64,000 nucleotides of DNA from Prosthecomicrobium pneumaticum (GTDB lineage Bacteria > Pseudomonadota > Alphaproteobacteria > Rhizobiales > Kaistiaceae). The stretch is from NCBI RefSeq assembly GCF_014199915.1, contig NZ_JACHOO010000002.1, positions 412,756-476,755 of the forward strand, given 5' to 3'. The translations under genes and the position numbers were made by a program. The notes below the pieces were generated by a model, which worked only from the letters and a program-made list of their open reading frames with translations, was not told the origin of the DNA and did no database searches. Below, piece after piece: positions 2,507 through 34,631 of this stretch (the first letter of the stretch is position 1; each line of letters opens with the position of its first letter).

Positions 2507-2770
2507 ATGAGCCATGTCAACGATCCCGCTATCCGCGACCGCCTCCGCCGGGCGTCCGGCCATCTCGCCACCGTCGTCCGCATGATCGAGGAGGAGCGCG
2601 ACTGCCTCGCCATCGCGCAGCAGCTGCAGGCCGTTTTGAAGGCGATCGAGAAGGTGAAGACGATGGTGATCCACGATCATCTCGAGAACCATCTCGGCGC
2701 CGCGGCGATCGCCTCGCCCGAGGCAAAACGGCTGCTCGACGACTTTCGCGAGATCTCGAAATATCTGTGA
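2507..2770 (+). CDS. dmeR: Metal-sensing transcriptional repressor, CsoR/RcnR family (DmeR-like)
   Basis: 87-residue all-helical regulator of the CsoR/RcnR/FrmR family. Family features visible are LRRASGHLATVVRMIEEERDC, a cysteine at the usual sensor position, the AIAQQLQAVLKAIEKVKTMV helix and the HDHLENHL segment with clustered His. In rhizobia the homologue DmeR represses the efflux gene dmeF and is released by Co(II)/Ni(II). The ATG at 2507 is chosen because a perfect operator-like inverted repeat lies immediately upstream. The transporter gene begins 5 bases after the stop, so the two form an operon. Metal specificity is inferred from the neighbour. Confidence 0.88.
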   Translation: MSHVNDPAIRDRLRRASGHLATVVRMIEEERDCLAIAQQLQAVLKAIEKVKTMVIHDHLENHLGAAAIASPEAKRLLDDFREISKYL

Positions 2771-2775
2771 GGCCG

Positions 2776-3780
2776 ATGTCGAACGCCCATCCGTCGAACC
2801 ATGTCTTCCTCGGCGCGGCGCATGACGAGAACGCCCGCCGCACCCGGATCGTGATCGCCATCACGCTGACCCTGATGGTGGCGGAGATCGGCGGCGGCTG
2901 GCTGTTCGGCTCGATGGCGCTGCTCGCCGACGGCTGGCACATGGCGACCGATGCCGGTTCGCTGGCCATCGCGGCCGGTGCCTATGCCTTCGCGCGGCGG
3001 CACCAGGACGATCCGCGCTTCTCCTTCGGCACGGGCAAGATCGGCGATCTCGCCGCCTTCGCGAGCGCCGTGGTGCTCGGCGTCGTCGCGCTGCTCCTCG
3101 CCGTGGAATCGATCGGCCGGATCTTCGCGCCGGTCGAGGTGATGTTCGGTGAGGCGCTCATCGTCGCCGTGCTCGGCCTCGCGGCCAATCTCGCCGGCGC
3201 CTTCATCCTGCTCGGCGGTGCCGGCGGTCACGGCCACCCCCACCCTCACGATCATCCCCACGATGCCGGCGGCGATCGCCACCACGGCCATGAGGAATCG
3301 GCCGAGGGCAGGGGCGCATCGAAACCGGGCTTCCTTGCCCGCTTCCGCCAGACGGCCGGCTCGGGCGACAACAATCTGCGCGCCGCCTATCTGCACGTGC
3401 TCGCCGACGCAGCGACATCGGTCACGGCGATCGCCGGCCTCGCGATCGGCGGTCTGTTCGACCTCGTCTGGATCGATCCGGCGATCGGCCTGTTCGGCGC
3501 CGCGATGATCGGCCTGTGGTCGGCCCGCCTGATGAAGGAGACCGGCGCGATCCTCGTCGACGCGGTGCCCGACCGAGGTCTGCTCGAGACGGTGCGGCGC
3601 CGTCTGGAATCGGCCGGGGGCTCGGTCGTCGACCTGCACCTCTGGCGGCTCGGGCCCGGTCACAACGCCCTCGTCGCCGCGGTCGAGTCCGACCGGCCCG
3701 ACGGCTATGAGGCGTATTCCGCCCGCATCAGGGACCTGCCGGGCCTGTCGCACATCACGATCGAGGTCCGCCGGCGCTGA
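2776..3780 (+). CDS. dmeF: Cation diffusion facilitator, Co/Ni efflux (DmeF-like)
   Basis: 334-residue CDF-family metal/proton antiporter of the inner membrane. Metal-site motifs are visible in TM2 (D52, H55, D59 in ADGWHMATD) and in TM5 (HVLAD). The cytoplasmic loop between TM4 and TM5 is very His-rich (HGHPHPHDHPHD, then HHGHEE), as in DmeF/CzcD-type exporters. A C-terminal cytoplasmic domain follows. The start ATG at 2776 lies 5 bases after the dmeR stop. DmeF homologues in rhizobia export Co(II) and Ni(II); the substrate here is inferred from the dmeR partner and was not tested. Confidence 0.9.
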   Translation: MSNAHPSNHVFLGAAHDENARRTRIVIAITLTLMVAEIGGGWLFGSMALLADGWHMATDAGSLAIAAGAYAFARRHQDDPRFSFGTGKIGDLAAFASAVVLGVVALLLAVESIGRIFAPVEVMFGEALIVAVLGLAANLAGAFILLGGAGGHGHPHPHDHPHDAGGDRHHGHEESAEGRGASKPGFLARFRQTAGSGDNNLRAAYLHVLADAATSVTAIAGLAIGGLFDLVWIDPAIGLFGAAMIGLWSARLMKETGAILVDAVPDRGLLETVRRRLESAGGSVVDLHLWRLGPGHNALVAAVESDRPDGYEAYSARIRDLPGLSHITIEVRRR

Positions 3781-3789
3781 ACGGGCGGC

Positions 3790-5268
3790 TCAGTGGGCGG
3801 CGAGCGAGCCGCCTTCCTTGTCGTGCACGCCGAAGCGCTCGACCATGGTCGCGCTCGCCGCATTGAGGCCGATCACCTCCATGACGCGGCCGTGGCGGCG
3901 CCCCTTCAGCACGACCCGGTCGAGCGCGGCGACGGCCGAGATGTCCCAGAAATGGGCCGCGCCGACATCGATGACGATCCGTTCGACCGGTTCGGTGACG
4001 TCGATCGAGTCGGAGAAGCCGGAGGCCGAGGCGAAGAAGACCTGCCCTTCGACACGATAGGTCCGCACCGTTCCGTCCGGCGAGAGGGTCGCGCTCACCC
4101 GGCTGAGCCGTGACACCTTGCCGGCGAAGAACACGCCCGACAAGAGAACGCCGACGAGCACACCCTTGGCGAGATCGTGCGTCGCGACGACGGTCGCGAC
4201 CGTCGCCAGCATCACCGCCGAGGACGGCAGCGGATTGGTGCGCAGCCGGAGGATCGAGCCCCACGAGAAGGTGTTGATCGAAACCATGATCATCACCGCG
4301 GTGAGCGCGGCGACCGGCACGATGGCGAGCAGGTCCTGCAGCAGGACGAGCAGCACGAGCAGGAAGACGCCGGCGGTCAGCGCCGACAGCCGGCCGCGGC
4401 CGCCGGACGAGACGTTGATCACCGACTGGCCGATCATGGCGCAGCCCCCCATGCCGCCGAACAGCGCCGAGGCGATGTTGGCGAGGCCCTGCCCCTTGCA
4501 TTCGCGGTTCTTGTCGCTCGGCGTGTCGGTCATGTCGTCGACGATCTGCGCGGTGAGCAGCGATTCGAGCAGCCCGACGGCGGCGAGCGTCAGCGAGACG
4601 GGGAAGATGATGGCGAGCGTCTCGAAGGTGAGCGGCACCATCGGCAGCGTGAAGCTCGGCAGGGCGCTCGGCAGTTCGCCGAGGTCGGAGACCGTTCTGA
4701 CGTCGAGCCCGAGCGCCATGACGGCGCCCGTCACAACGACGATGGCGACGAGCGGCGACGGCACGGCGCGGGTGAGCCGCGGCAGCAGGTAGATGATCGC
4801 CAGGCCGAGGGCGATCAGGCCGTAGGTCGCCGGCGGGACGCTGGTGAGCTCCGGAAGCTGGGCGAGAAAGATCAGGATGGCGAGCGCGTTGACGAAGCCC
4901 GTCATCACTGATCGGGAGACGAAGCGCATCAGCCGGCCGAGCTTCAGAAAGCCGGCTGCGATCTGGATCACGCCCATCAGGATCGTCGCGGCAAAGAGAT
5001 ATTCGATGCCGTGATCGCGGACGAGGCCGGCCATCAGCACGGCGGTGGCGGCCGTCGCGGCCGAGATCATGCCCGGACGCCCGCCGGTGAAGGCGATGAC
5101 GCAGGCGATCACCACCGAGGCGTAGAGCCCGACCTTCGGGTCGACGCCCGCGATGACGGAGAAGCCGATCGCCTCGGGGATGAGGGCGAGCGCGACGACG
5201 ATGCCGGAGAGCACGTCGGCGCGAATGTTGGCGAGCCAGGAGCGGCCATAGGCGGAGTTTCGGATCAT
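3790..5268 (-). CDS. SulP family inorganic anion transporter with STAS domain
   Basis: 492 residues from ATG 5268. The N-terminal transport domain opens with [20 protein letters not shown] and contains the SulP signature region [20 protein letters not shown], then many membrane segments. A C-terminal STAS domain follows ([15 protein letters not shown] ... [19 protein letters not shown]). Members carry sulfate, bicarbonate or other anions; the substrate cannot be told from sequence. An upstream in-frame ATG at 5391 would add 41 residues of proline/charged sequence atypical of the family, so 5268 is preferred. It is convergent with dmeF (9-base gap). Confidence 0.88.
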
Positions 5269-5509
5269 CGGGGACTTGAGAGACGCGGACAGGCAGACGG
5301 GCGGCGCGAAATGGCGGCGGGGCGGTCTGTGCTGTTCGTGGTCCGGCGGATCGGCGGCCGGAAGAGCCACCCGGATTTTCACCGGGTCCATGCGGATGAG
5401 CTCTTTCTAGCGGTGGCGGCCTTTGCATCGCAAGAGGAGCGCTGCACATTTCTCGCGCCGCAACATGGCGATTGGCGCCCGGCGGCCGTTTCGTGCTAGG
5501 ATCAATGCC

Positions 5510-5644
5510 ATGAGCCGGTCCGCCACCCTCGCCCTCTCGACCGCCGCCGTGCTGCTGCTCGGCGGGGCCGGGGTGCTCTGGGCGGCGCAGGCGGATGCGG
5601 TGTTTTTCGACGCGATCGCCGCCGGCTTCGCGCTCTGCCTGTGA
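5510..5644 (+). CDS. Small single-span membrane or exported protein, unknown function
   Basis: 44 residues, too short for confident family assignment. One hydrophobic stretch (about residues 6-28, TLALSTAAVLLLGGAGVLWA) followed by AQADAVFFDAIAAGFALCL and a C-terminal Cys-Leu. It lies in the same direction as, and 72 bases before, the tlyA-like gene. Codon third positions are G/C-rich like the neighbours, which supports coding. No function can be assigned. Confidence 0.5.
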   Translation: MSRSATLALSTAAVLLLGGAGVLWAAQADAVFFDAIAAGFALCL

Positions 5645-5716
5645 CGGCCGGCCTCTGAAGGCTTGCGTCCGGCGCGGCGCCGGGCCATCACCTGCGCCCA
5701 TGCCTCCGTTGCGCCC

Positions 5717-6481
5717 ATGACAGACCCCTCGCTCCGCCTCGATCAGGCGCTCGTCGCCCGCGGCCTCGTGCCCACGCGGGCGCGGGCGCGCGACGCGATC
5801 CTGCGCGGCCATGTCCGCGTCGCCGGCCGCCTCGCCGACAAGCCGGGCACGAGCGTGCCGCACGATGCCGAGCTCGCCATCGACGATCCGGCCTCGGCCT
5901 ATGTCAGCCGGGCGGCGCTGAAGCTCGTCGCCGGGCTCGATGCCTTCGGCTACGATCCCGCCGGCCGGGTCGCGCTCGATCTCGGCGCCTCGACGGGCGG
6001 CTTCACGCAGGTGCTGCTCGAGCGCGGCGCGGCGCGCGTCCATGCCTTCGACGTCGGCCATGGCCAGCTTCACCCCGCGCTCGCCGCCGATCCGCGCGTC
6101 GTCTCGCGCGAGGGCTTCAACGTCCGCGACCTCACCGCGGCCGAGATCGGCGAGCCGGTCGGAGCGGTCGTTTCCGACCTCTCCTTCATCTCGCTCCGGC
6201 TCGGCCTGCCGCCGGCGCTCACGCTCGCCGCGCCGGGCGCCTTCCTCGTCGCGCTGATCAAGCCGCAATTCGAGGTCGGTCGGGCGCATGTCGGCAAGGG
6301 CGGGCTGGTGCGCGACGGGGCCGCGATCGACGCGGCGGTCGAGGGCATCCGGGCCTTCGTCGCCGCGACGCCGGGCTGGATCGTCGAGGGGGTGGCCCCC
6401 TCCCCGATCACCGGCGGCGACGGCAATCGGGAATTCCTGATCGGCGCCCGCAAGAAGGGTGGAGGTGGCGCCGGTGCTTGA
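5717..6481 (+). CDS. tlyA: TlyA family RNA methyltransferase
   Basis: 254 residues. An N-terminal S4 RNA-binding domain (LRLDQALVARGLVPTRARAR) is followed by a FtsJ-type class I methyltransferase domain with the SAM motif LDLGASTGGFTQVLLERGA and the catalytic-region motif DLSFISLRL ... ALIKPQFEVG. TlyA enzymes 2'-O-methylate rRNA (C1409 of 16S, and C1920 of 23S in some lineages). The ATG at 5717 gives the usual N-terminus; upstream sequence in frame lacks similarity. Its last 8 bases overlap the next methyltransferase gene, indicating translational coupling. Confidence 0.92.
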   Translation: MTDPSLRLDQALVARGLVPTRARARDAILRGHVRVAGRLADKPGTSVPHDAELAIDDPASAYVSRAALKLVAGLDAFGYDPAGRVALDLGASTGGFTQVLLERGAARVHAFDVGHGQLHPALAADPRVVSREGFNVRDLTAAEIGEPVGAVVSDLSFISLRLGLPPALTLAAPGAFLVALIKPQFEVGRAHVGKGGLVRDGAAIDAAVEGIRAFVAATPGWIVEGVAPSPITGGDGNREFLIGARKKGGGGAGA

Positions 6482-7753: not shown

Positions 7754-8839
7754 TCAGCCGACCTGGCCGCGATGGCGCAGGTAATGGTCGGCGATCACGC
7801 AGGCGACCATCGCCTCGCCGATCGGCACTGCGCGGATGCCGACGCAGGGGTCGTGCCGGCCCTTGGTGATCAGTTCGACCTCCTGCCCGCCCGAGGTGAT
7901 CGAGCGGCGGGGATTGAGGATGGACGAGGTCGGCTTGACGGCGAAGCGGGCGACGATCTCCTGGCCGGTCGAGATGCCGCCGAGAATGCCGCCGGCATGG
8001 TTCGACAGGAAGACCGGCTTGCCGTCATTGCCGAGCCGCATCTCGTCGGCGTTCTCCTCGCCGGTGAGCGCGGCGGCGGCGAAGCCCTCGCCGATCTCGA
8101 CGCCCTTGACGGCATTGATCGACATCAGCGCCCCGGCGATGTCCTGGTCGAGCTTGGCATAGATCGGCGCACCGAGGCCGGGCGGCACGCCCTCGGCGAC
8201 CACCTCGATCACCGCGCCGATCGACGAGCCGGACTTGCGGATGCCGTCGAGATAGACCGCCCATTCCTCCGCCGCCACGGGATCGGGGCAGAAGAAGGGG
8301 TTGTCGTCGACCGCGTTCCAGTTCCAGCGGCTGCGATCCACTTTGAGCGGCCCCATCTGGACGAGCGCGCCGCGCACCGTGAGGCCCGGCACGACCTTGC
8401 GGGCGATCGCGCCGGCGGCGACCCGCGCCGCGGTCTCGCGCGCCGAGGAACGTCCGCCGCCGCGATAATCGCGAATGCCGTATTTGGCGTCATAGGCATA
8501 GTCGGCATGGCCCGGCCGGTAGCGGTCGGCGATGTCGCCGTAATCCTTCGAGCGCTGGTCGACGTTCTGGATCTCGAGCGCGATCGGCGTGCCGGTGGTG
8601 AGCAGCCGGCCGTCCGCCTGAGGCATGACGCCGGAGAGGATCCGCACCTCGTCCGGCTCGCGCCGCTGCGTCGTGAAGCGCGACTGACCGGGCCGGCGCT
8701 TGTCGAGACAGGCCTGGATCTCGGCCTCCGAAATCTCGATGCGCGGCGGACAGCCGTCCACCACCGCGCCGAGCGCGGGTCCGTGGCTCTCGCCCCAGGT
8801 CGTGACGCGGAAGAGATGGCCGAACGTATTGTGCGACAT
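7754..8839 (-). CDS. aroC: Chorismate synthase
   Basis: 361 residues, full length. Converts 5-enolpyruvylshikimate 3-phosphate to chorismate using reduced FMN, the last step of the shikimate pathway. Family signatures are present: [19 protein letters not shown] near the N-terminus, [36 protein letters not shown] and the C-terminal [20 protein letters not shown]. It is monocistronic and convergent with the RlmD/TrmA-type gene; a 412-base gap lies upstream. Confidence 0.97.
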
Positions 8840-9251: not shown

Positions 9252-9554
9252 ATGTCGGACAGTGCCATGCGTGCCTCCAATCCCAGCCTTCTCGCCCTCA
9301 CCCTGGCGCTCGCCGCGACCCCCGCGGTCGCCGCGCTCCAGTCGGAGCGAACCGTCGACGGACTGGAAGCGCATGCCGGCACCATCGTGCTGTCGACCGG
9401 CGAACGCTTCAGCTTCTCTCACCCGGCGCAGCTGATCGGCTTCGCTCCGGGTGAAGCGGACGGCCTCGATCAGTTCCGGCAGACCGGACGCTCGGCCTTC
9501 GAGCCCTGCGATCCCGACATCGTCATGCCGGCCGGAATCGATCGGGGCGAATGA
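9252..9554 (+). CDS. Diverged DUF1344-like exported protein, upstream member of the array
   Basis: 100 residues with a signal-peptide-like start (SLLALTLALAATPAVA). The mature part AGTIVLSTGERFSFSHPAQLIGFAPGE aligns with the core shared by the six following paralogues (GSTLTLTNGQSFRIENPAAVVGFIPGD), but the C-terminal strand (VTVGY...VALGV) is replaced by an unrelated, more acidic tail with one cysteine. It looks like an older duplicate that has diverged, or a related gene from which the array arose. Function unknown. The first tandem copy begins 43 bases downstream. Confidence 0.65.
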   Translation: MSDSAMRASNPSLLALTLALAATPAVAALQSERTVDGLEAHAGTIVLSTGERFSFSHPAQLIGFAPGEADGLDQFRQTGRSAFEPCDPDIVMPAGIDRGE

Positions 9555-9597
9555 CAACGGCGCCCCCACGAAGAGGGCGCGAACACGGAGAATGATC

Positions 9598-9867
9598 ATG
9601 AAGACCCTCGCTCTCGCGGCCGCCTCGGTCGCCTTCATCGCCGCCGCCGGCTCCGCCTTCGCCGCGCAGCAGATCGACGGCACGCTCGGCGCCGTCAACG
9701 GCTCGACCCTCACGCTCACCAACGGCCAGTCCTTCCGCATCGAGAACCCCGCGGCGGTGGTCGGCTTCATCCCGGGCGACACGGTGACGGTCGGTTATGC
9801 GGACGAAGGCAGCCAGAAGGTCGCGCTCGGCGTCAGCCATCGCGCCGACCCGACCAAGAACGACTGA
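9598..9867 (+). CDS. DUF1344-like exported protein, array copy 1
   Basis: 89 residues: signal peptide (MKTLALAAASVAFIAAAGSA, then FAAQQ as likely cleavage region) and a mature domain of about 65 residues with beta-strand-like pattern DGTLGAVNGSTLTLTNG, IENPAAVVGFIPGD, TVTVGYADEG, VALGVSHRADPTKND. It fits the short periplasmic DUF1344 family; function unknown. ATG 9598 is preferred over the in-frame ATG at 9592 because copy 2 lacks the upstream ATG and the GGAG at 9587-9590 is better spaced to 9598. Following spacer differs from those of the later copies. Confidence 0.8.
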   Translation: MKTLALAAASVAFIAAAGSAFAAQQIDGTLGAVNGSTLTLTNGQSFRIENPAAVVGFIPGDTVTVGYADEGSQKVALGVSHRADPTKND

Positions 9868-10028
9868 GCCCGGGCCCCGCGCCCGAGCCTCGACTGAACC
9901 CCACCTCTGGACGGCCCTGATGGGCCGGCCCCGGTCGGGCGCGGCGGAGCCCCCATCGTCGCGCCCGACTACCCCGACAAACACCACGCCGCCCTGAAGA
10001 GCGGCGCGCCCAACCACGGAGAAAGATC

Positions 10029-10295
10029 ATGAAGACCCTCGCTCTCGCGGCCGCCTCGGTCGCCTTCATCGCCGCCGCCGGCTCCGCCTTCGCCGCGCAG
10101 CAGGTCGACGGCACGCTCGGCGCCGTCAACGGCTCGACCCTCACCCTCACCAACGGCCAGTCCTTCCGCATCGAGAACCCCGCGGCGGTGGTCGGCTTCA
10201 TCCCCGGCGACACGGTGACGGTCGGCTATGCGGCTGAAGGCAGCCAGAAGGTTGCGCTCGGCGTCAGCCGCCGCGCCGACCCGACGAAGGACTGA
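10029..10295 (+). CDS. DUF1344-like exported protein, array copy 2
   Basis: 88 residues, almost identical to copy 1 (QQVDG instead of QQIDG, AAEGSQ instead of ADEGSQ, SRRADPTKD end). In this copy the upstream ATG of the ATGATCATG start cluster has become AAG, which shows the third codon (MKTLAL) is the conserved start for all copies. Exported by a Sec signal peptide. Function unknown. Confidence 0.8.
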   Translation: MKTLALAAASVAFIAAAGSAFAAQQVDGTLGAVNGSTLTLTNGQSFRIENPAAVVGFIPGDTVTVGYAAEGSQKVALGVSRRADPTKD

Positions 10296-10399
10296 ACAAG
10301 AACCCGGCGATCGGGCCCGGCGGCAAGCCCGCCGCCCCGCCCGGCGCCCGACGCAACCGCGCTTCCGCACAAGACGGGACGCGATCACGGAGAATGATC

Positions 10400-10666
10400 A
10401 TGAAGACTCTCGCTCTCGCGGCCGCTTCGGTCGCCTTCATCGCCGCCGCCGGCTCCGCCTTCGCCGCGCAGCAGGTCGACGGCACGCTCGGCGCCGTCAA
10501 CGGCTCGACCCTCACCCTCACCAACGGCCAGTCCTTCCGCGTCGAGAACCCCTCGGCCGTGGTCGGCTTCATCCCCGGCGACACGGTGACCGTCGGTTAT
10601 GCGAGCCAGGGCGGCGAGAAGGTCGCGCTCGGCGTCAGCCGCCGCGCCGACCCGACCAAGGACTGA
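10400..10666 (+). CDS. DUF1344-like exported protein, array copy 3
   Basis: 88 residues; mature region carries VENPSAVVGFIPGD and ASQGGEKVALGVSRRADPTKD, shared exactly with copy 4, so these two copies are the most recently duplicated or converted. A short duplication of the stop region (GACTGACCAAGGACTGA) follows. Sec signal peptide as in the other copies; function unknown. Confidence 0.8.
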   Translation: MKTLALAAASVAFIAAAGSAFAAQQVDGTLGAVNGSTLTLTNGQSFRVENPSAVVGFIPGDTVTVGYASQGGEKVALGVSRRADPTKD

Positions 10667-10701
10667 CCAAGGACTGAACGACCAACCCGGCGACCGGGTC
10701 C

Positions 10702-10719
10702 GGCGGCGACAACGCCGCC
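10702..10719 (+). other. Intercistronic hairpin after array copy 3
   Basis: Perfect 7-bp stem GGCGGCG / CGCCGCC with loop ACAA, within the spacer between copies 3 and 4. There is no T tract after it, so it is more likely an mRNA-stabilising or attenuating structure than a full terminator. The same hairpin is repeated after copy 4. Confidence 0.5.
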
Positions 10720-10783
10720 CCGCCCGCCGCCCGATGAAACCGCGCTCCCGCACAAGACGGGACGCGATCCACGGAGAATGATC

Positions 10784-11050
10784 ATGAAGACCCTCGCTCT
10801 CGCGGCCGCCTCGGTCGCCTTCCTCGCCGCCGCCGGCTCCGCCTTCGCCGCGCAGCAGATCGACGGCACGCTCGGCGCCGTCAACGGCTCGACCCTGACC
10901 CTCACCAACGGCCAGTCCTTCCGCGTCGAGAACCCCTCGGCCGTGGTCGGCTTCATCCCCGGCGACACGGTGACCGTCGGTTATGCGAGCCAGGGCGGCG
11001 AGAAGGTCGCGCTCGGCGTCAGCCGCCGCGCCGATCCGACCAAGGACTGA
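10784..11050 (+). CDS. DUF1344-like exported protein, array copy 4
   Basis: 88 residues; differs from copy 3 at only a few positions (AFLAAAGSAF and QQIDG). Same ribosome site, signal peptide and C-terminal ASQGGEKVALGVSRRADPTKD. Function unknown. Confidence 0.8.
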   Translation: MKTLALAAASVAFLAAAGSAFAAQQIDGTLGAVNGSTLTLTNGQSFRVENPSAVVGFIPGDTVTVGYASQGGEKVALGVSRRADPTKD

Positions 11051-11074
11051 ACGACCAACCCGGCGATCGGGCCC

Positions 11075-11092
11075 GGCGGCGACAACGCCGCC
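11075..11092 (+). other. Intercistronic hairpin after array copy 4
   Basis: Same perfect stem GGCGGCG / CGCCGCC with ACAA loop as after copy 3. A comparable stem GGCGGC-AGG-GCCGCC follows copy 5 at 11448-11462, with a different loop, so the structure is kept while the loop varies. Confidence 0.5.
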
Positions 11093-11156
11093 CCGCCCGG
11101 CGCCCGATGAAACCGCGCTTCCGCACAAGACGGGACGCGATCCACGGAGAATGATC

Positions 11157-11429
11157 ATGAAGACCCTCGCTCTCGCGGCCGCCTCGGTCGCCTTCCTCGC
11201 CGCCGCCGGTTCGGCCTTCGCCGCCCAGGAAGCGGTCGGCACCGTCGGTTCGGTGAACGGCTCGACCCTGACGCTCACCAACGGCCAGTCCTTCCGCGTC
11301 GAGAACCGCTCGGCGGTGATCGGCTTCATCCCCGGCGACACGGTTGCGGTCGGCTATGCCGACGAAGGCAGCCAGAAGGTGGCGCTCGGCGTCGCCCGCT
11401 TCGCCGACCCGACCAAGAACGACAACTGA
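11157..11429 (+). CDS. DUF1344-like exported protein, array copy 5
   Basis: 90 residues. More diverged than copies 2-4 in the first mature strand (AQEAVGTVGSVNGSTLTLTNG) and at the end (VALGVARFADPTKNDN), yet keeps the upstream spacer of copies 3-4. Signal peptide MKTLALAAASVAFLAAAGSA. Function unknown. Confidence 0.8.
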   Translation: MKTLALAAASVAFLAAAGSAFAAQEAVGTVGSVNGSTLTLTNGQSFRVENRSAVIGFIPGDTVAVGYADEGSQKVALGVARFADPTKNDN

Positions 11430-11527
11430 CCAGCCCGCGATCGGGCCGGCGGCAGGGCCGCCGCCCGGCACGGACTCTCCTCGACCACCCCTCCCGCAGA
11501 AGGCGGGAACAACCACGGAGAAGTCCC

Positions 11528-11803
11528 ATGAAGACGCTTGCTCTCGCGACCGCGTCGGTCGCGTTCCTTGCCGCCGCGGCCGGCTCCGCCCTCGCGGCCC
11601 AGCAGGCCGACGGCACGGTCGGCTCGGTGACCGCCAACACGATCACCTTCACGAACGGTCAGTCCTTCCGCCTCGAGCACCCCAATGAGGCGCTCGGCTT
11701 CATTCCCGGCGACACGGTCAGCGTCGGCTATCAGAACGAGAACGGCCATCCGGTGGCACTCGGCGTCGTGCGGCGCCCCGATCCGACGAAGAGCAGTGGC
11801 TGA
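11528..11803 (+). CDS. DUF1344-like exported protein, array copy 6
   Basis: 91 residues and the most diverged of the six: ADGTVGSVTANTITFTNG, LEHPNEALGFIPGD, TVSVGYQNENGHPVALGV, RRPDPTKSSG. The fold pattern and the GFIPGD turn are kept. Only one ATG is present at its start. It is followed by a strong hairpin near 11852-11886 that would end transcription of the array. Function unknown. Confidence 0.8.
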   Translation: MKTLALATASVAFLAAAAGSALAAQQADGTVGSVTANTITFTNGQSFRLEHPNEALGFIPGDTVSVGYQNENGHPVALGVVRRPDPTKSSG

Positions 11804-11851
11804 AAACAGCGGTTGAGCCCGTCCCCCATCCTGATCTCCGGGCTCTAGCGA

Positions 11852-11886
11852 AGGCGGCGGCCGGTCCCCTCCGGTCGCCGCCTTTG
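11852..11886 (+). terminator. Terminator between the array and the histidine phosphatase gene
   Basis: Stem AGGCGGCG (then CCGG) pairing with CCGG and CGCCGCCT, one internal mismatch, loop TCCCCT, followed by TTGGCTTT. It lies between convergent genes and probably ends the array transcript on the plus strand. Confidence 0.65.
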
Positions 11887-11902: not shown

Positions 11903-12496
11903 TCAGATGTAGCGGCCGACCCCGCCCTGCCAGAGATAGACGCGATCCTGCGGCACGTCGAGCCGGACGAGCTCGAGCCGGTCGACACCATCGAGCAGGC
12001 CGCGCAACACGCGATAGACGCCGCCATGCGAGACGACGACGGTGTCGCGCGCGATGGTGGCGAGCCAACCCTCGATCCGGCGCGACAGGTCGGCATAGCT
12101 CTCGCCGTTCGGGGAGGCATAGCCCCATTTGTCCCGGTCGCGCGCGGCATAGGCCTCGGCCGCGATCGCCGCGATCTCGTCGAGCGTATGGCCCTCCCAG
12201 TCGCCATAGCTGACTTCGCGCAGCACCGGATCGAGCCGGTAGGCGGCGGGATCGAGTCCCATCGCGGCCCGGACCAGTTCCATCGTTTCGCGGGCGCGCA
12301 CGAGCGGGCTGGCGACGAAGTCGAAATCCGCCGCCTCGGGCATGCGCGCGGCGATCAACGCGCCGTTCTGCCGGGCCTGGCCGCGGCCACGATCGTTGAG
12401 GGGCACGTCGCGCTGCCCCTGCAGGCGGCCGACGGCGTTCCAGTCCGTCTCGCCATGGCGCACGAAGACAATGCGCGGCAGGGCGGCCGGGCTCAC
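11903..12496 (-). CDS. Histidine phosphatase family protein (phosphoglycerate mutase-like)
   Basis: 197 residues from GTG 12496. The phosphohistidine motif is VFVRHGETDWN; the second active-site His is in VVVSHGGVYR, and the conserved Glu region is LREVSYGDWEGHTLDE. These enzymes are cofactor-independent-of-substrate phosphatases or mutases of wide specificity; the exact substrate is not evident. The GTG overlaps the fabI stop (TGA 12493-12495), so the two genes are translationally coupled in one minus-strand operon. Confidence 0.88.
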   Translation of the reverse strand: MSPAALPRIVFVRHGETDWNAVGRLQGQRDVPLNDRGRGQARQNGALIAARMPEAADFDFVASPLVRARETMELVRAAMGLDPAAYRLDPVLREVSYGDWEGHTLDEIAAIAAEAYAARDRDKWGYASPNGESYADLSRRIEGWLATIARDTVVVSHGGVYRVLRGLLDGVDRLELVRLDVPQDRVYLWQGGVGRYI

Positions 12497-13314
12497 TCCT
12501 TCGCCACCGCGATGTCGGGGGCGTCGACCGCCTTCATGCCGACGACATGATAGCCCGAATCGACATGGTGGATCTCGCCGGTGACCGAGCGCGACAGATC
12601 GGAGAGGAAATAGAGACCGGCATCGCCGACCTCCTCGATCGTCACGGTACGCCGCAGCGGCGCGTTGTATTCGTTCCACTTCAGGATATAGCGGAAGTCG
12701 CCGATGCCGGAGGCGGCGAGCGTTTTGATCGGCCCGGCGGAGATCGCGTTGACGCGGATGCCGTTCGGGCCGAGATCGGCGGCGAGGTAACGCACGCTCG
12801 CCTCGAGCGCCGATTTGGCGACGCCCATGACGTTGTAGTGCGGCATCACCTTCTCGGCGCCGTAATAGGTGAGGGTCAGCACCGAGCCGCCCTTCGTCAT
12901 CAGCTTTTCGGCCCGTTGCACCACGGCGGTGAGAGAATAGACCGAGATCTGCATGGTGCGGGCGAAGTTCTCGGCCGTCGTGTCGACATAGCGGCCGGTC
13001 AGCTCGTCCTTGTCGGAGAAGGCGATCGCATGGACGAGGAAGTCGAGCCCGCCCCAGGCGCGCTCGATCTCGCCGAACACGGCGTCGATCGTCGAGGGGT
13101 CGGTGACGTCGCAATGACCGGCGACGAGCGCACCCAGTTCGGCCGCCAGCGGCTCGACGCGCTTCTTCAGCGCATCGCCCTGGTAGGTGAGCGCGAGTTC
13201 GGCGCCGGCGTCGCGCACGGCCTTGGCGATGCCCCAGGCGATCGACCGGTTGTTGGCGACGCCCATGATGAGGCCGCGCTTCCCCGCCATCAATCCGCCC
13301 GATGCCGTCATCAT
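12493..13314 (-). CDS. fabI: Enoyl-[acyl-carrier-protein] reductase (NADH), FabI type
   Basis: 273 residues. Reduces trans-2-enoyl-ACP in fatty acid elongation. Nucleotide-binding region GLIMGVANNRSIAWGIAKA is typical of FabI, as is the active-site Tyr-x6-Lys (HYNVMGVAKSALE) with the preceding TYYGAEK, and the substrate loop VNAISAGPIKTLAASGI. Start is ATG 13314 or the adjacent ATG 13311; a GGAAGG element lies just upstream. Homologous positions indicate the triclosan target class. It is followed by the overlapping histidine phosphatase gene. Confidence 0.95.
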   Translation of the reverse strand: MMTASGGLMAGKRGLIMGVANNRSIAWGIAKAVRDAGAELALTYQGDALKKRVEPLAAELGALVAGHCDVTDPSTIDAVFGEIERAWGGLDFLVHAIAFSDKDELTGRYVDTTAENFARTMQISVYSLTAVVQRAEKLMTKGGSVLTLTYYGAEKVMPHYNVMGVAKSALEASVRYLAADLGPNGIRVNAISAGPIKTLAASGIGDFRYILKWNEYNAPLRRTVTIEEVGDAGLYFLSDLSRSVTGEIHHVDSGYHVVGMKAVDAPDIAVAKE

Positions 13315-32329: not shown

Positions 32330-32887
32330 TCACGAACCGTTGCGGAAGAGCCGCACCTGCGCGATGCCGGCCTCGCGCCGGTCGATCTCCTCGAGCCCGT
32401 CGATCGGCGCGATCTCGGCCTTCGCGTCCTCCTCGAGCACCAGCAGGGCGCCGGGCGCCAGCCATCCGCCCGCCCGCGCGGAAGCAAGCGCCCGCTCGCC
32501 GAGACCCTTGCCATAGGGCGGATCGGCGAAGACGAGATCGAAAGGAGCGAGCGGCGCGACCGGTCCGAGATCGGTGGCGTCGCGGCGGAAGATCTTGGTG
32601 CGGCCGGTGAGGCCGAAGGCCTCGACATTGGTGCGGATCAGGCCGCGGCCCTCGGCACCGATCTCGACGAAGAGCACGAAATCCGCGCCGCGCGACAGCG
32701 CCTCGATGCCGAGCGCGCCCGTTCCGGCGAAGAGATCGAGCACCCGCGCGCCGGGCACGGGATCGCCGAGCCCGTGCGCCAGCCGGTTGAAGAGGCTCTC
32801 GCGCAGCCGGTCGGAGGTCGGCCGGATCGCGGCGCCGGCGGGCGTCGCGAGGGTCCGGCCGCGAAACTCACCGCCGACGACCCGCAT
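32330..32887 (-). CDS. rsmD: 16S rRNA (guanine(966)-N2)-methyltransferase
   Basis: 185 residues. [16 protein letters not shown] is the standard N-terminus, then [18 protein letters not shown] motif [20 protein letters not shown] and the catalytic [11 protein letters not shown]. Methylates G966 of 16S rRNA during 30S assembly. Its first 20 bases overlap the 3' end of the upstream pseudouridine synthase gene, so the two rRNA-modification genes are coupled. Confidence 0.94.
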
Positions 32888-34553
32888 CGCCGCCCCGTGT
32901 CGGCCCGCGTCCCGGTTTGCCGCCGGTCGGACGGCCACCGCCCGGCTTGCCGCGCGGCGGACCGCTGCGCGACGGACCCTTGCCGCCACCCGCCGCTTCA
33001 TCGCGCCGCGGCGGCCGGGCCTTGAACGGCCGATCGCCGCCGCCACCCTCTTCGCGACGCGGCTTGAACGGCCGATCGCCGCCACCTTCCTCGCGCCGCG
33101 GCTTGAACGGCCGAGCGCCGGCGCCCTCTTCGCGACGCGGCTTGAACGGACGGTCGCCGCCGCCCTCCTCACGCCGCGGCCGGAACGGCCGATCACCGGC
33201 AGCTTCCTCGCGCCGCGGCCTGAACGGCCGATCGCCGCCACCTTCCTCGCGCCGAGGCCGGAACGACCGATCGCCGGCGCCCTCTTCGCGACGCGGCTTG
33301 AACGGGCGATCGCCGGCGCCCTCCTCACGCCGAGGCCGGAATGGACGGTCGCCGCCACCCTCCTCACGCCGAGGCCGGAACGGCCGATCACCGGCACCTT
33401 CCTCGCGCCGCGGCTTGAACGGACGGTCGCCGGCACCTTCCTCGCGCCGCGGCCGGAACGGCCGATCGCCGGCACCTTCCTCACGCCGAGGCCGGAACGG
33501 ACGGTCACCCGCGCCTCCCTCGCGCCGAGGCCTGAACGGCCGATCGCCTGCGCCCTCCGCGCGCCGCGGCTTGAAGGGGCGGTCGCCGGCGCCTTCCTCG
33601 CGCCGGGGGCGGGTGGCGCGCTCGCCCGCGCCCTCCTCGCGACGCGGCCGGACCGGCCGGTCGCCACGCGCGCCGCGACGCTCCTCGGCAGGCTCCGGCT
33701 TGGCCGGTGTGCGGCGGCGCGGCGGAGCGTCGCCGGCCGTCGGGGGACGGATCGGCGCGTCGAAATCGGTCTCGGCCTCGTCCATCAGGCGTGGCCCGAG
33801 CTGGTCGCGCAGCATGCGGCCGCGGATCTCGACCACCTCGCCCTCCGGCAGGTCGCCGAGCTGGAAGGGCCCGTAGGACACCCGGATCAGCCGGCTCACA
33901 TCGAGCCCGAGATGGCCGAGAATCTTCTTCACCTCGCGGTTCTTGCCCTCGCGAAGTCCGAGCGTCAGCCAGGTATTGGCGCCCTGCACCCGGTCGATCA
34001 CCGCCTCGACCGCGCCATAGACGACGCCCTCGATGGTCAGCCCGTCGGCGAGCGGCAGGAGATCGGCCGGCGTGATCTCGCGGCCATAGGCGCGCACCCG
34101 GTAGCGCCGCAGCCAGCCGGTCGCCGGCAGTTCGAGCACGCGGGCGAGCCCGCCGTCATTGGTGAGCAGCAGGAGGCCTTCGGTGTTGATGTCGAGCCGG
34201 CCCACCGCGACGACGCGCGGCAGCTCGTCGGGCAGCGAATCGAACACGGTCGGCCGCCCCTCGGGGTCGCGCGCCGTGGTGACGAGGCCGCGCGGCTTGT
34301 GATAGAGCCACAGCCGCGTCCGCTCGCGCTCCGGCAGCGGCTCGCCGTCGACCGTCACCGAATCGCCGGGCTTGACGTTCACTGCCGGGCTCGTCAGCGT
34401 CCGGCCGTTGATGGCGACGCGGCCCTCCTCGATCCAGCGCTCGGCGTCGCGGCGCGAGCAGAGGCCCGCGCGGGCGAGCACCTTGGCGATGCGGTCGATC
34501 CGTTCGTCGCCGGCGGCCTCGTCGCGGCCGTTGCGTTTCCTCGTGTCGGTCAT
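32868..34553 (-). CDS. RluB-type rRNA pseudouridine synthase with long Arg-rich repeat tail
   Basis: 561 residues. Residues about 20-75 form an S4 RNA-binding domain ([20 protein letters not shown]), and residues 80-250 a RsuA/RluB synthase domain with the catalytic aspartate in [18 protein letters not shown] and [13 protein letters not shown]. The C-terminal half is a low-complexity tail of about 17 tandem units of 13 residues (consensus [13 protein letters not shown]), ending in a Gly/Arg/Lys-rich stretch. Typical RluB lacks such a long tail in enteric bacteria, but rhizobial members often carry basic tails. Start ATG 34553. Confidence 0.9.
33010..33665 (-). repeat. 39-bp tandem repeats inside the pseudouridine synthase gene
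   Basis: About 17 direct repeats of a 39-base unit coding RPF(R/K)PRREEG(A/G)GD. Units differ mainly at silent sites and by Arg/Lys and Ala/Gly exchanges, so copy number probably varies between strains. A sequence-identical run this long is also a place where assemblies can collapse. Confidence 0.9.
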
Positions 34554-34631
34554 GAGAGTTCGTGATCCTCGCGGCGGCGCCATCGGCGGCGCGGCCCATT
34601 AGAGCGGACTGTTAGCAGAGGGAAGAGCGGC

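What the first reader, a model, noticed from the sequence alone, without database searches (positions are those of the whole stretch)
9252..11803. Six-copy tandem array of DUF1344-like exported proteins plus a diverged ancestor
Six head-to-tail genes of about 89 codons, with nearly identical signal peptides and cores and unit lengths of 371-431 bases, follow a seventh, shorter relative whose C-terminal strand has been replaced. Copies 3 and 4 are closest, copies 1 and 6 most changed, which is the pattern of unequal crossing-over with gene conversion in the middle. A dose increase of a small periplasmic protein of unknown role, kept intact in all copies, suggests selection for high expression.
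Basis: partly seen in the sequence, partly recalled or inferred. Interest (0 to 1): 0.82.

Follow-up and report, generated by a model that had tools for sequence, protein, structure and literature searches.

The report
Sixfold tandem array of periplasmic proteins
A bacterium related to Kaistia carries six intact, head-to-tail copies of a gene for a tiny exported barrel-shaped protein of unknown job; close relatives multiplied the same kind of gene on their own, which suggests these cells need a lot of it.

Summary
The array is real: six intact head-to-tail genes (88-91 codons) at 9598-11803, 75-98% identical in DNA, between aroC and a histidine-phosphatase gene. The products are diverged relatives of DUF1344: the window copies fall below Pfam's cut-off, but profile comparison with canonical rows (E 3e-13), shared gene position and above-cut-off Kaistia relatives link them. 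The mature part is predicted as an OB barrel (pLDDT 86); SilF scores highest (Z 9.1, tied within 1 with PilY2, CusF, LEF-3 and RecO), but the SilF/CusF metal residues are absent. The six copies form their own clade: amplification (or homogenisation) in this lineage. Kaistia, the sister genus, has tandem copies in 13 of 14 genomes, beside aroC or beside leuD, never at both. No decayed copies were found, dN/dS is 0.18-0.51, and copies 1-5 show ribosomal-like codon bias: best read as repeated selection for dose of a small periplasmic OB protein. Gene conversion is suggestive only. The ligand is unknown.

The parts
7754..8839 (-). aroC (chorismate synthase), divergent left neighbour of the array
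   Evidence: PF01264 E 3.8e-129; a family gene lies beside aroC in 12 Kaistia genomes
9252..9554 (+). w0: seventh relative (start at 9252 or 9270), nearest the Kaistia-type subfamily, no codon bias
9560..9580 (+). stem-loop ahead of the ribosome site of copy 1 (6 WC pairs)
9598..9867 (+). copy 1, 89 aa
9985..10008 (+). stem-loop ahead of the ribosome site of copy 2 (different stem sequence)
10029..10295 (+). copy 2, 88 aa
10363..10379 (+). short stem-loop ahead of copy 3 (4 WC pairs, weak)
10400..10666 (+). copy 3, 88 aa
10746..10762 (+). stem-loop ahead of copy 4 (5 WC pairs)
10784..11050 (+). copy 4, 88 aa; the protein folded (whole; mature part)
11119..11135 (+). short stem-loop ahead of copy 5 (4 WC pairs, weak)
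11157..11429 (+). copy 5, 90 aa
11492..11508 (+). stem-loop ahead of copy 6 (6 WC pairs)
11528..11803 (+). copy 6, 91 aa, most diverged, no codon bias
11851..11885 (+). strong stem-loop after the last copy, terminator-like (between convergent genes)
   Evidence: 66-nt stretch folds at -40.5 kcal/mol, z -4.36; not listed by the consensus terminator scan
11903..12499 (-). histidine-phosphatase gene, convergent right neighbour
   Evidence: PF00300 E 3.5e-44; its relative is called at 8 of 9 Kaistia aroC-side loci laid out, and beside the DUF1344 gene of G039

Best explanation
The array is a lineage-specific amplification of one gene for a small exported (by its signal peptide) periplasmic protein, a diverged relative of DUF1344 with a five-stranded OB barrel. 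SHOWN: six intact copies; a conserved site between aroC and a phosphatase gene; homology to DUF1344; separate tandem arrays in the sister genus Kaistia; purifying selection; codon bias in copies 1-5. PREDICTED: OB fold, signal peptide. INFERRED: the copies are transcribed towards the terminator-like hairpin at 11851-11885, each read from its own ribosome site, some with a 5' stem-loop that could stabilise or insulate it; copy number rose by unequal crossing-over between near-identical units and is held because a high dose is useful. The protein would then work stoichiometrically in the periplasm, as a binding or buffering protein (ligand unknown; not a CusF-type copper site).
For: Array and units. 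Homology: hhalign of the six mature copies against seven DUF1344 rows that share no sequence with them, prob 98.0, E 3e-13, 58 columns; Kaistia relatives above Pfam's 23.1-bit cut-off: 29.7, 27.6, 24.8, 23.3. Synteny: phosphatase - array - aroC in Kaistia; a DUF1344 gene (54 bits) beside the same phosphatase gene in G039, another family. Fold: pLDDT 85.7, pTM 0.67; SilF Z 9.1, rmsd 1.6 over 62 of 66 residues. Six copies form a clade, 97/95; the window genome is sister to Kaistia on the aroC tree. Tandem copies in 13 of 14 Kaistia genomes. tblastn at E <= 0.001 shows no decayed copy in the window stretch or 16 relative loci, apart from one cut by a contig end. dN/dS 0.18-0.51 over 15 pairs. Codon bias beyond composition: 21, 67, 117, 21, 30 of 2000 simulations reach copies 1-5.
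Against: Copy 6 and w0 show no codon bias (1289 and 1906 of 2000 simulations reach them), copy 3 is marginal (117 of 2000), and the copies are not independent. The bias is modest against neighbours (aroC 0.74, four others 0.68-0.73, copies 0.80-0.84), and in Kaistia G024 the array (0.72-0.82) hardly stands out from its aroC (0.76). Foldseek gives no match at E <= 0.001, and its first row for the mature model is a cold-shock domain, not SilF. PilY2, CusF, LEF-3 and RecO tie with SilF within 1 Z unit, and models without a clear match often reach Z 7-8. Stem-loops of the window copies alone are not above chance (3 of 6; terminator-like sites 2 found, 2.6 expected in shuffles). No sigma-70 consensus promoter found. 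No expression data.
Confidence: 0.6

Rival explanations
1. Diversification rather than dose: copies are drifting to different ligands or conditions (sub- or neofunctionalisation), with copies 5, 6 and w0 the specialised ones.
For: Copies 5 and 6 are 82-84% and 67-70% identical to the others; copy 6 and w0 lack the codon bias of copies 1-5; changes include the turn between the last two strands (DEGSQK / SQGGEK / QNENGHP).
Against: Copies 1-4 are 91-98% identical in protein; dN/dS is at most 0.51 in all 15 pairs; Kaistia arrays include identical or near-identical copies.
Confidence: 0.25
2. Neutral recombination hot spot: near-identical units expand and shrink by unequal crossing-over and copy number has no benefit.
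For: Copy number beside aroC varies from 1 to 6 in Kaistia; mosaic signals in copy 4 (p 0.002 uncorrected); one switch on the aroC tree is enough to explain which of the two Kaistia loci is amplified.
Against: No decayed copy seen in the arrays examined; purifying selection; none of the 13 Kaistia genomes with tandem copies has them at both the aroC and the leuD locus, although with a looser profile G011 also has a pair of distant relatives elsewhere, on C7; clusters of three or more were seen only in this family among 199 sampled genomes of the order, with at most 27 candidates scored per genome.
Confidence: 0.12
3. CusF/SilF-type copper or silver chaperone.
For: SilF and CusF are among the closest solved folds; CusF_Ec is often the second Pfam match, below its cut-off.
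Against: The mature copies hold no Met, Cys or Trp and 0-2 His, so the Met/His ion site with its Trp cannot be formed; none of the scanned neighbours is an efflux gene.
Confidence: 0.03
4. Assembly artefact.
For: Draft assembly of 24 contigs.
Against: Copies and spacers all differ; single-contig Kaistia genomes hold arrays too.
Confidence: 0.02

Closest known systems
DUF1344 (Pfam PF07076)
   Same: Signal peptide plus one small beta-rich domain; profile match E 3e-13 to DUF1344 rows; same genomic place as the DUF1344 gene of G039 and as Kaistia members
   Different: Window copies score below the Pfam cut-off (12.6 of 23.1 bits at best) and are in six tandem copies
CusF / SilF periplasmic Cu(I)/Ag(I) chaperones (OB fold)
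   Same: Predicted OB barrel, rmsd 1.6-1.7 over 60-62 residues, exported
   Different: 13-15% identity; no Met or Trp, so no such metal site; no efflux gene among the scanned neighbours
SipA / VisP / YgiW family of periplasmic stress proteins (PMC6370654: abstract and outline seen; its OB fold is recalled)
   Same: Small periplasmic protein; a binding role (SipA binds antimicrobial peptides) is a working analogy
   Different: Not among the Pfam matches of the window copies; no evidence of stress induction here
ExtJ (NCBIfam NF040942)
   Same: Best NCBIfam match of all six copies, 26-31 bits, E 2.8e-7 to 7.9e-6
   Different: Below its cut-off of 52.5 bits; the matched stretch includes the signal peptide; none of the scanned neighbours is an ext-type gene

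Membership tests
DUF1344 (PF07076) | Score above Pfam's curated cut-off (23.1 bits) | tested here: not met
   0 of 7 window proteins; best 12.6 bits; no match in the own genome with the family model. Of five Kaistia array or aroC-side proteins besides L098, four pass: 29.7, 27.6, 24.8, 23.3 bits; L039's aroC-side copy (22.0) and L098 (16.6) do not
DUF1344 (PF07076) | Detectable homology over the domain by profile comparison with other members | tested here: met
   hhalign of the six copies against seven rows: prob 98.0, E 3e-13 (one pairwise comparison, not a library search), 58 columns; the rows were over the cut-off, one of them (L050) only with its neighbours in the frame
DUF1344 (PF07076) | Positional orthology with an above-cut-off member | tested here: met
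   G039 DUF1344 (54 bits) beside the same phosphatase gene, with three called ORFs between it and aroC; Kaistia members between phosphatase gene and aroC
CusF/SilF | OB-fold barrel | tested here: met
   Predicted only: SilF Z 9.1, CusF Z 8.3, tied with other OB folds
CusF/SilF | Two Met and one His metal ligands, with a Trp (ligand set from passages of PMC10656224) | tested here: not met
   0 Met and 0 Trp in all six mature copies
ExtJ (NF040942) | Score above curated cut-off (52.5 bits) | tested here: not met
   26.2-30.8 bits in the six copies
YgiW/SipA/VisP | Pfam profile match | tested here: inconclusive
   Not listed at E <= 10 for any window copy, but HMMER's filters drop weak matches; no profile comparison was made
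Tandem array held by dose selection | All copies intact and under purifying selection | tested here: met
Tandem array held by dose selection | Higher protein level with more copies | not testable with these tools
   needs RNA-seq or proteomics

The most novel reading that the evidence does not exclude
In one bacterial family a DUF1344-derived periplasmic OB-fold protein has become a bulk component whose dose is set mainly by one tandem array per genome; the array was built separately in the window's genus and in Kaistia, changed its place inside Kaistia (leuD side or aroC side, never both in the 13 genomes with tandem copies), and on the Kaistia aroC side carries a 5' RNA stem-loop ahead of nearly every tandem copy (20 of 22), suggesting a post-transcriptional device that keeps each cistron stable or insulated. 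(Lowered from 0.3 on recheck: G011 has a further pair of distant relatives on C7.)
Probability: 0.25. Interest if true: 0.55.

Novelty: new member of a known kind. Interest (0 to 1): 0.42.

Why it matters
I found no described function of DUF1344 in the papers I could search (one search of the library, two papers, both naming it in passing). A lineage that has repeatedly multiplied such a gene gives a place where the function should be strong enough to measure: deleting an array of six, or comparing Kaistia species with one to six copies beside aroC, makes the role of a common protein of unknown function testable (63 of 199 genomes sampled from the order match a family profile). The predicted OB barrel without the CusF metal residues also turns the guess from copper or silver handling to binding of some other ligand.

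Tried and rejected
Metal chaperone: rejected as the main reading because the mature copies lack Met, Cys and Trp. RNA families: two matches far below their gathering scores, sR53 (18.6 of 49 bits) and CcsR1 (18.5 of 65.3). Viral origin: in the one scan of viral contigs, none of 600 pattern matches encodes a relative. Solved relatives by sequence: best E 0.13, unrelated proteins. Gene conversion: maximum chi-square over 59 triplets, best p 0.002 (copy 4 between copies 3 and 5) and 0.0025 (copy 4 between copies 1 and 3); not significant after correction, so left as suggestive. Function from neighbours of the second Kaistia array (Aconitase_C, Aconitase, Zincin_1, HpcH/HpaI, kinase of the Phos_pyr_kin/PfkB kind, DUF429, DUF3830, HbpS-like, methyltransferase): no coherent pathway that I can see. 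'leuD' is my reading of adjacent Aconitase_C and Aconitase proteins; 'fabI' rests on adh_short_C2 in L036.

5' stem-loops: 29 of 55 array genes have a stem of at least 6 Watson-Crick pairs in the stretch from -52 to -9, against 9.8% of shuffles and 22 of 121 control genes with a ribosome site. By my split's list: Kaistia aroC-side tandem copies 20 of 22, window 3 of 6, leuD-side arrays 5 of 23, Kaistia single aroC-side copies 0 of 3, one dispersed copy 1 of 1. So it is a trait of some arrays, not of the family; paralogues are not independent; and for the window alone it is not above chance. The consensus scan lists two of the window stems as terminator-like on the - strand, where shuffles give 2.6. 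Loop lengths vary (3 to 8 in the Kaistia aroC-side arrays, 5 to 9 in the window), which fits RNA better than a fixed-spacing DNA operator (inference). Left out before that count: the seventh gene, the rows of L049, L050 and L053, one copy without 60 bases upstream (end of L051), and the aroC-side copies seen only.

Dropped or weak rows: the window baseline includes wrongly called ORFs, so I rely, which left out 8 of 38 called genes with CAI under 0.5; that raises the baseline and works against my claim. Ribosomal reference genes were named by eye around the S7 match, not scanned; of the five neighbours only aroC and the phosphatase were scanned. aroC-side copies were not checked in G025 and G027. 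In one search and only part of the candidates was scored in many genomes (27 at most), so counts there are lower bounds. The gene tree has few columns, unsettled bootstraps and long branches, w0 among them. The first structure job (full length, pLDDT 68.6) was followed by a mature-part job (pLDDT 85.7). One search failed (script error) and was rerun. Of the loci fetched, only L102 and L103 were used; L131 and L132 were too short to use. A fold family missing is not evidence against it.
Full report
WHAT IS THERE. Six complete genes lie head to tail on the + strand: 9598-9867, 10029-10295, 10400-10666, 10784-11050, 11157-11429 and 11528-11803 (89, 88, 88, 88, 90, 91 aa), with start-to-start distances of 431, 371, 384, 373 and 371 bases. 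Tandem Repeats Finder gives the region a score of 2311. Protein identities: copies 3/4 98%, 1/2 97%, copies 1-4 among themselves 91-98%, copy 5 82-84% to copies 1-4, copy 6 67-70% to all others. The spacers before copies 3, 4 and 5 are also alike (89-96% where aligned, with 2-13 gap positions), so the repeated unit is gene plus upstream spacer.

THE SEVENTH GENE. 9252-9554 (100 codons; 94 from the ATG at 9270) is a true relative: E 2.9e-4 with copy 2 as query, 1.7e-7 with family profile A3. It scores 43.0 bits with a profile of 8 Kaistia aroC-side proteins, 41.2 with one of 38 Kaistia array proteins, and 23.8 with one of its six neighbours. Its C-terminus therefore looks like the Kaistia-type ending, not a replacement, and it stands next to aroC as the Kaistia copies do. 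In the tree it is a long branch (2.07) placed with the Kaistia rows (fork 91/86), a place the program itself calls unsure. 'Ancestor' is not shown.

GENOMIC SETTING. The array sits between aroC (PF01264, divergent) and a histidine-phosphatase gene (PF00300, convergent). In the own genome (4.65 Mb, 24 contigs) the copy-2 query finds only these seven places; profile A3 adds one weak relative elsewhere (C5:307842-308114, 39.2 bits; no Pfam match). A 66-nt stretch after copy 6 folds at -40.5 kcal/mol, z -4.36, as one long hairpin with a short T-rich tail; the consensus terminator scan does not list it. No sigma-70 consensus promoter was found, which says little for this kind of bacterium.

RELATIVES. 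Of 61 genomes (own plus 60 relatives), 17 match copy 2: the own genome, G003, G039 and 14 of genus g9. Of 11 named loci, six are titled Kaistia; the other five, filed under Mesorhizobium, Bosea and Hyphomicrobiales, match g9 contigs by length, so I call g9 Kaistia. Two or more copies within about 1.5 kb are seen in 13 of 14 g9 genomes; the exception, G027, is in 720 contigs. Beside aroC: six copies in G024 and G016, four in G026, three in G020, two in G022, at least four in G023 (at the ends of two contigs: the array breaks that assembly), and one each in G008, G011, G014, G018, G019 and G021. A second array locus, beside an Aconitase_C gene (leuD-type), holds five copies in G019 and three each in G008, G011, G014, G018, G021 and G025. 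By the copy-2 query no genome among these 13 has tandem copies at both loci; with the looser profile G011 shows a further pair of distant relatives on C7. On the aroC tree of 12 Kaistia genomes the six aroC-array genomes form one clade (98/97) and the window genome is sister to Kaistia, so one switch inside Kaistia is enough to explain the pattern; these are not 13 separate events. Order-wide, 63 of 199 sampled genomes match the family profile; clusters of three or more within 2 kb occur only in G000, G008 and G011, all of the same family, and pairs in G004, G005, G011 and G090 (my reading's list). That profile leans towards this family, and at most 27 candidates per genome were scored.

HOMOLOGY. 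None of the seven window proteins reaches Pfam's DUF1344 cut-off (12.6 of 23.1 bits at best), and the family model finds nothing in the own genome at E <= 0.01, while 12 of 31 genomes have a match over the cut-off. Among relatives scanned singly, L053 54.0, L086 39.1, L039 29.7, L046 27.6, L036 24.8 and L091 23.3 pass; L039's aroC-side copy (22.0), L098 (16.6), L074 and L121 (no match) do not. The six mature window copies align with seven DUF1344 rows that share no sequence with them at E 3e-13, probability 98.0, a single pairwise comparison; L049, L050 and L053 had first been found with a window copy as query. A DUF1344 gene (54 bits) lies beside the same phosphatase gene in G039, of another family, with three called ORFs between it and aroC. 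I therefore call the array a diverged derivative of DUF1344, not a Pfam-defined member. NCBIfam's best match is ExtJ, 26-31 bits against a cut-off of 52.5.

ORIGIN OF THE COPIES. The six copies form a clade (97/95) apart from the Kaistia rows: amplification, or homogenisation, in this lineage. dN/dS over the 15 pairs is 0.18-0.51. tblastn at E <= 0.001 found no decayed copy in the window stretch or in 16 relative loci, apart from one cut by a contig end. Mosaic signals in copy 4 are suggestive only.

FOLD. Full-length copy 4: pLDDT 68.6. Mature part: pLDDT 85.7, pTM 0.67, strands 2-12, 15-18, 23-26, a short helix 29-32, strands 40-48 and 51-59: three strands, helix, two strands, the OB order (the OB order is in a passage of PMC10656224). 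Foldseek shows no match at E <= 0.001; its first 50 rows are, by my reading, mostly OB and cold-shock folds, led by a cold-shock domain of Unr. Of 998 of its chains aligned again, SilF comes first (Z 9.1, rmsd 1.6, 62 aligned), then PilY2 8.5, CusF 8.3, LEF-3 8.3 and RecO 8.2, all tied within 1; single-strand-DNA-binding proteins follow at 7-7.6. Z near 8 is common for models without a clear match, so the fold class is better supported than the nearness to SilF. The ligand set of SilF/CusF (Met, His, a Trp; passages of PMC10656224) is absent: no Met, Cys or Trp and 0-2 His in the mature copies.

EXPRESSION. With a ribosomal reference from the same genome (mean CAI 0.785), copies 1-5 score 0.80-0.84, copy 6 0.66 and w0 0.55. 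Against simulated genes coding the same proteins with average window codon use, 21, 67, 117, 21 and 30 of 2000 reach copies 1-5, but 1289 reach copy 6 and 1906 reach w0. The copies are not independent. Five neighbours score 0.68-0.74; in Kaistia G024 the array (0.72-0.82) is in the upper range of its ribosomal reference (0.60-0.83) but close to its aroC (0.76).

MECHANISM. Shown: array, intactness, purifying selection, homology, recurrence in a sister genus, codon bias in five copies. Predicted: signal peptide, OB fold. Inferred: near-identical units recombine unequally and change copy number; a higher dose of a periplasmic OB-fold binding or buffering protein is favoured; 5' stem-loops, clear in the Kaistia aroC-side arrays and weak in the window, may stabilise each cistron. 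SipA of Vibrio cholerae, which binds antimicrobial peptides in the periplasm (PMC6370654, abstract and outline seen), is a working analogy, not a relative shown here.

LITERATURE. 'DUF1344' occurs in two papers of the library searched, in a motif table and in a gene list (passages seen). 'Kaistia' with 'tandem' and 'periplasmic' gave none. A search for concerted evolution of tandem arrays with dosage listed 12 papers, none of which I opened. Other libraries were not searched.

Noticed in passing
32868-34583 (-), repeats at 33014-33665: A pseudouridine-synthase-like protein (named by eye, not scanned) has a long basic C-terminal tail of about 16 copies of a 13-residue repeat ([13 protein letters not shown] type), encoded by a 39-bp tandem repeat.
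   Followed up: no
L103 (G023:C1:1-9000) and L051 (end of G023:C2): The Kaistia array breaks an assembly: copies lie at the ends of two contigs, so draft genomes may under-count these arrays.
   Followed up: partly
L074 (G007, aroC locus) 2716-4085; L088 (G005) 1429-2306; L050 (G003) 4775-5839: Other genera of the family carry two or three DUF1344-like genes in a row, some with long Pro/Ala- or Asp/Glu-rich tails; in G007 they lie beside aroC.
   Followed up: partly
L036, L039, L042, L044 upstream of the array genes: Most Kaistia aroC-side tandem copies carry a GTCGAAC-loop-GTTCGAC stem directly before the ribosome site; two genes (L036:8768 and the dispersed L052 copy) have the inner A-T pair as T-A, keeping the stem.
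   Followed up: partly
L039:6137-6409 and L051:5290-5556: The copy farthest from aroC in G016, and its like in G023, has lost the PGQ.VGV core motif but stays open: a diverging copy at the array's edge.
   Followed up: no
G011:C7:180199-180924 (not fetched as a locus): A further close pair of distant family members in a Kaistia-type genome, away from both array loci.
   Followed up: no
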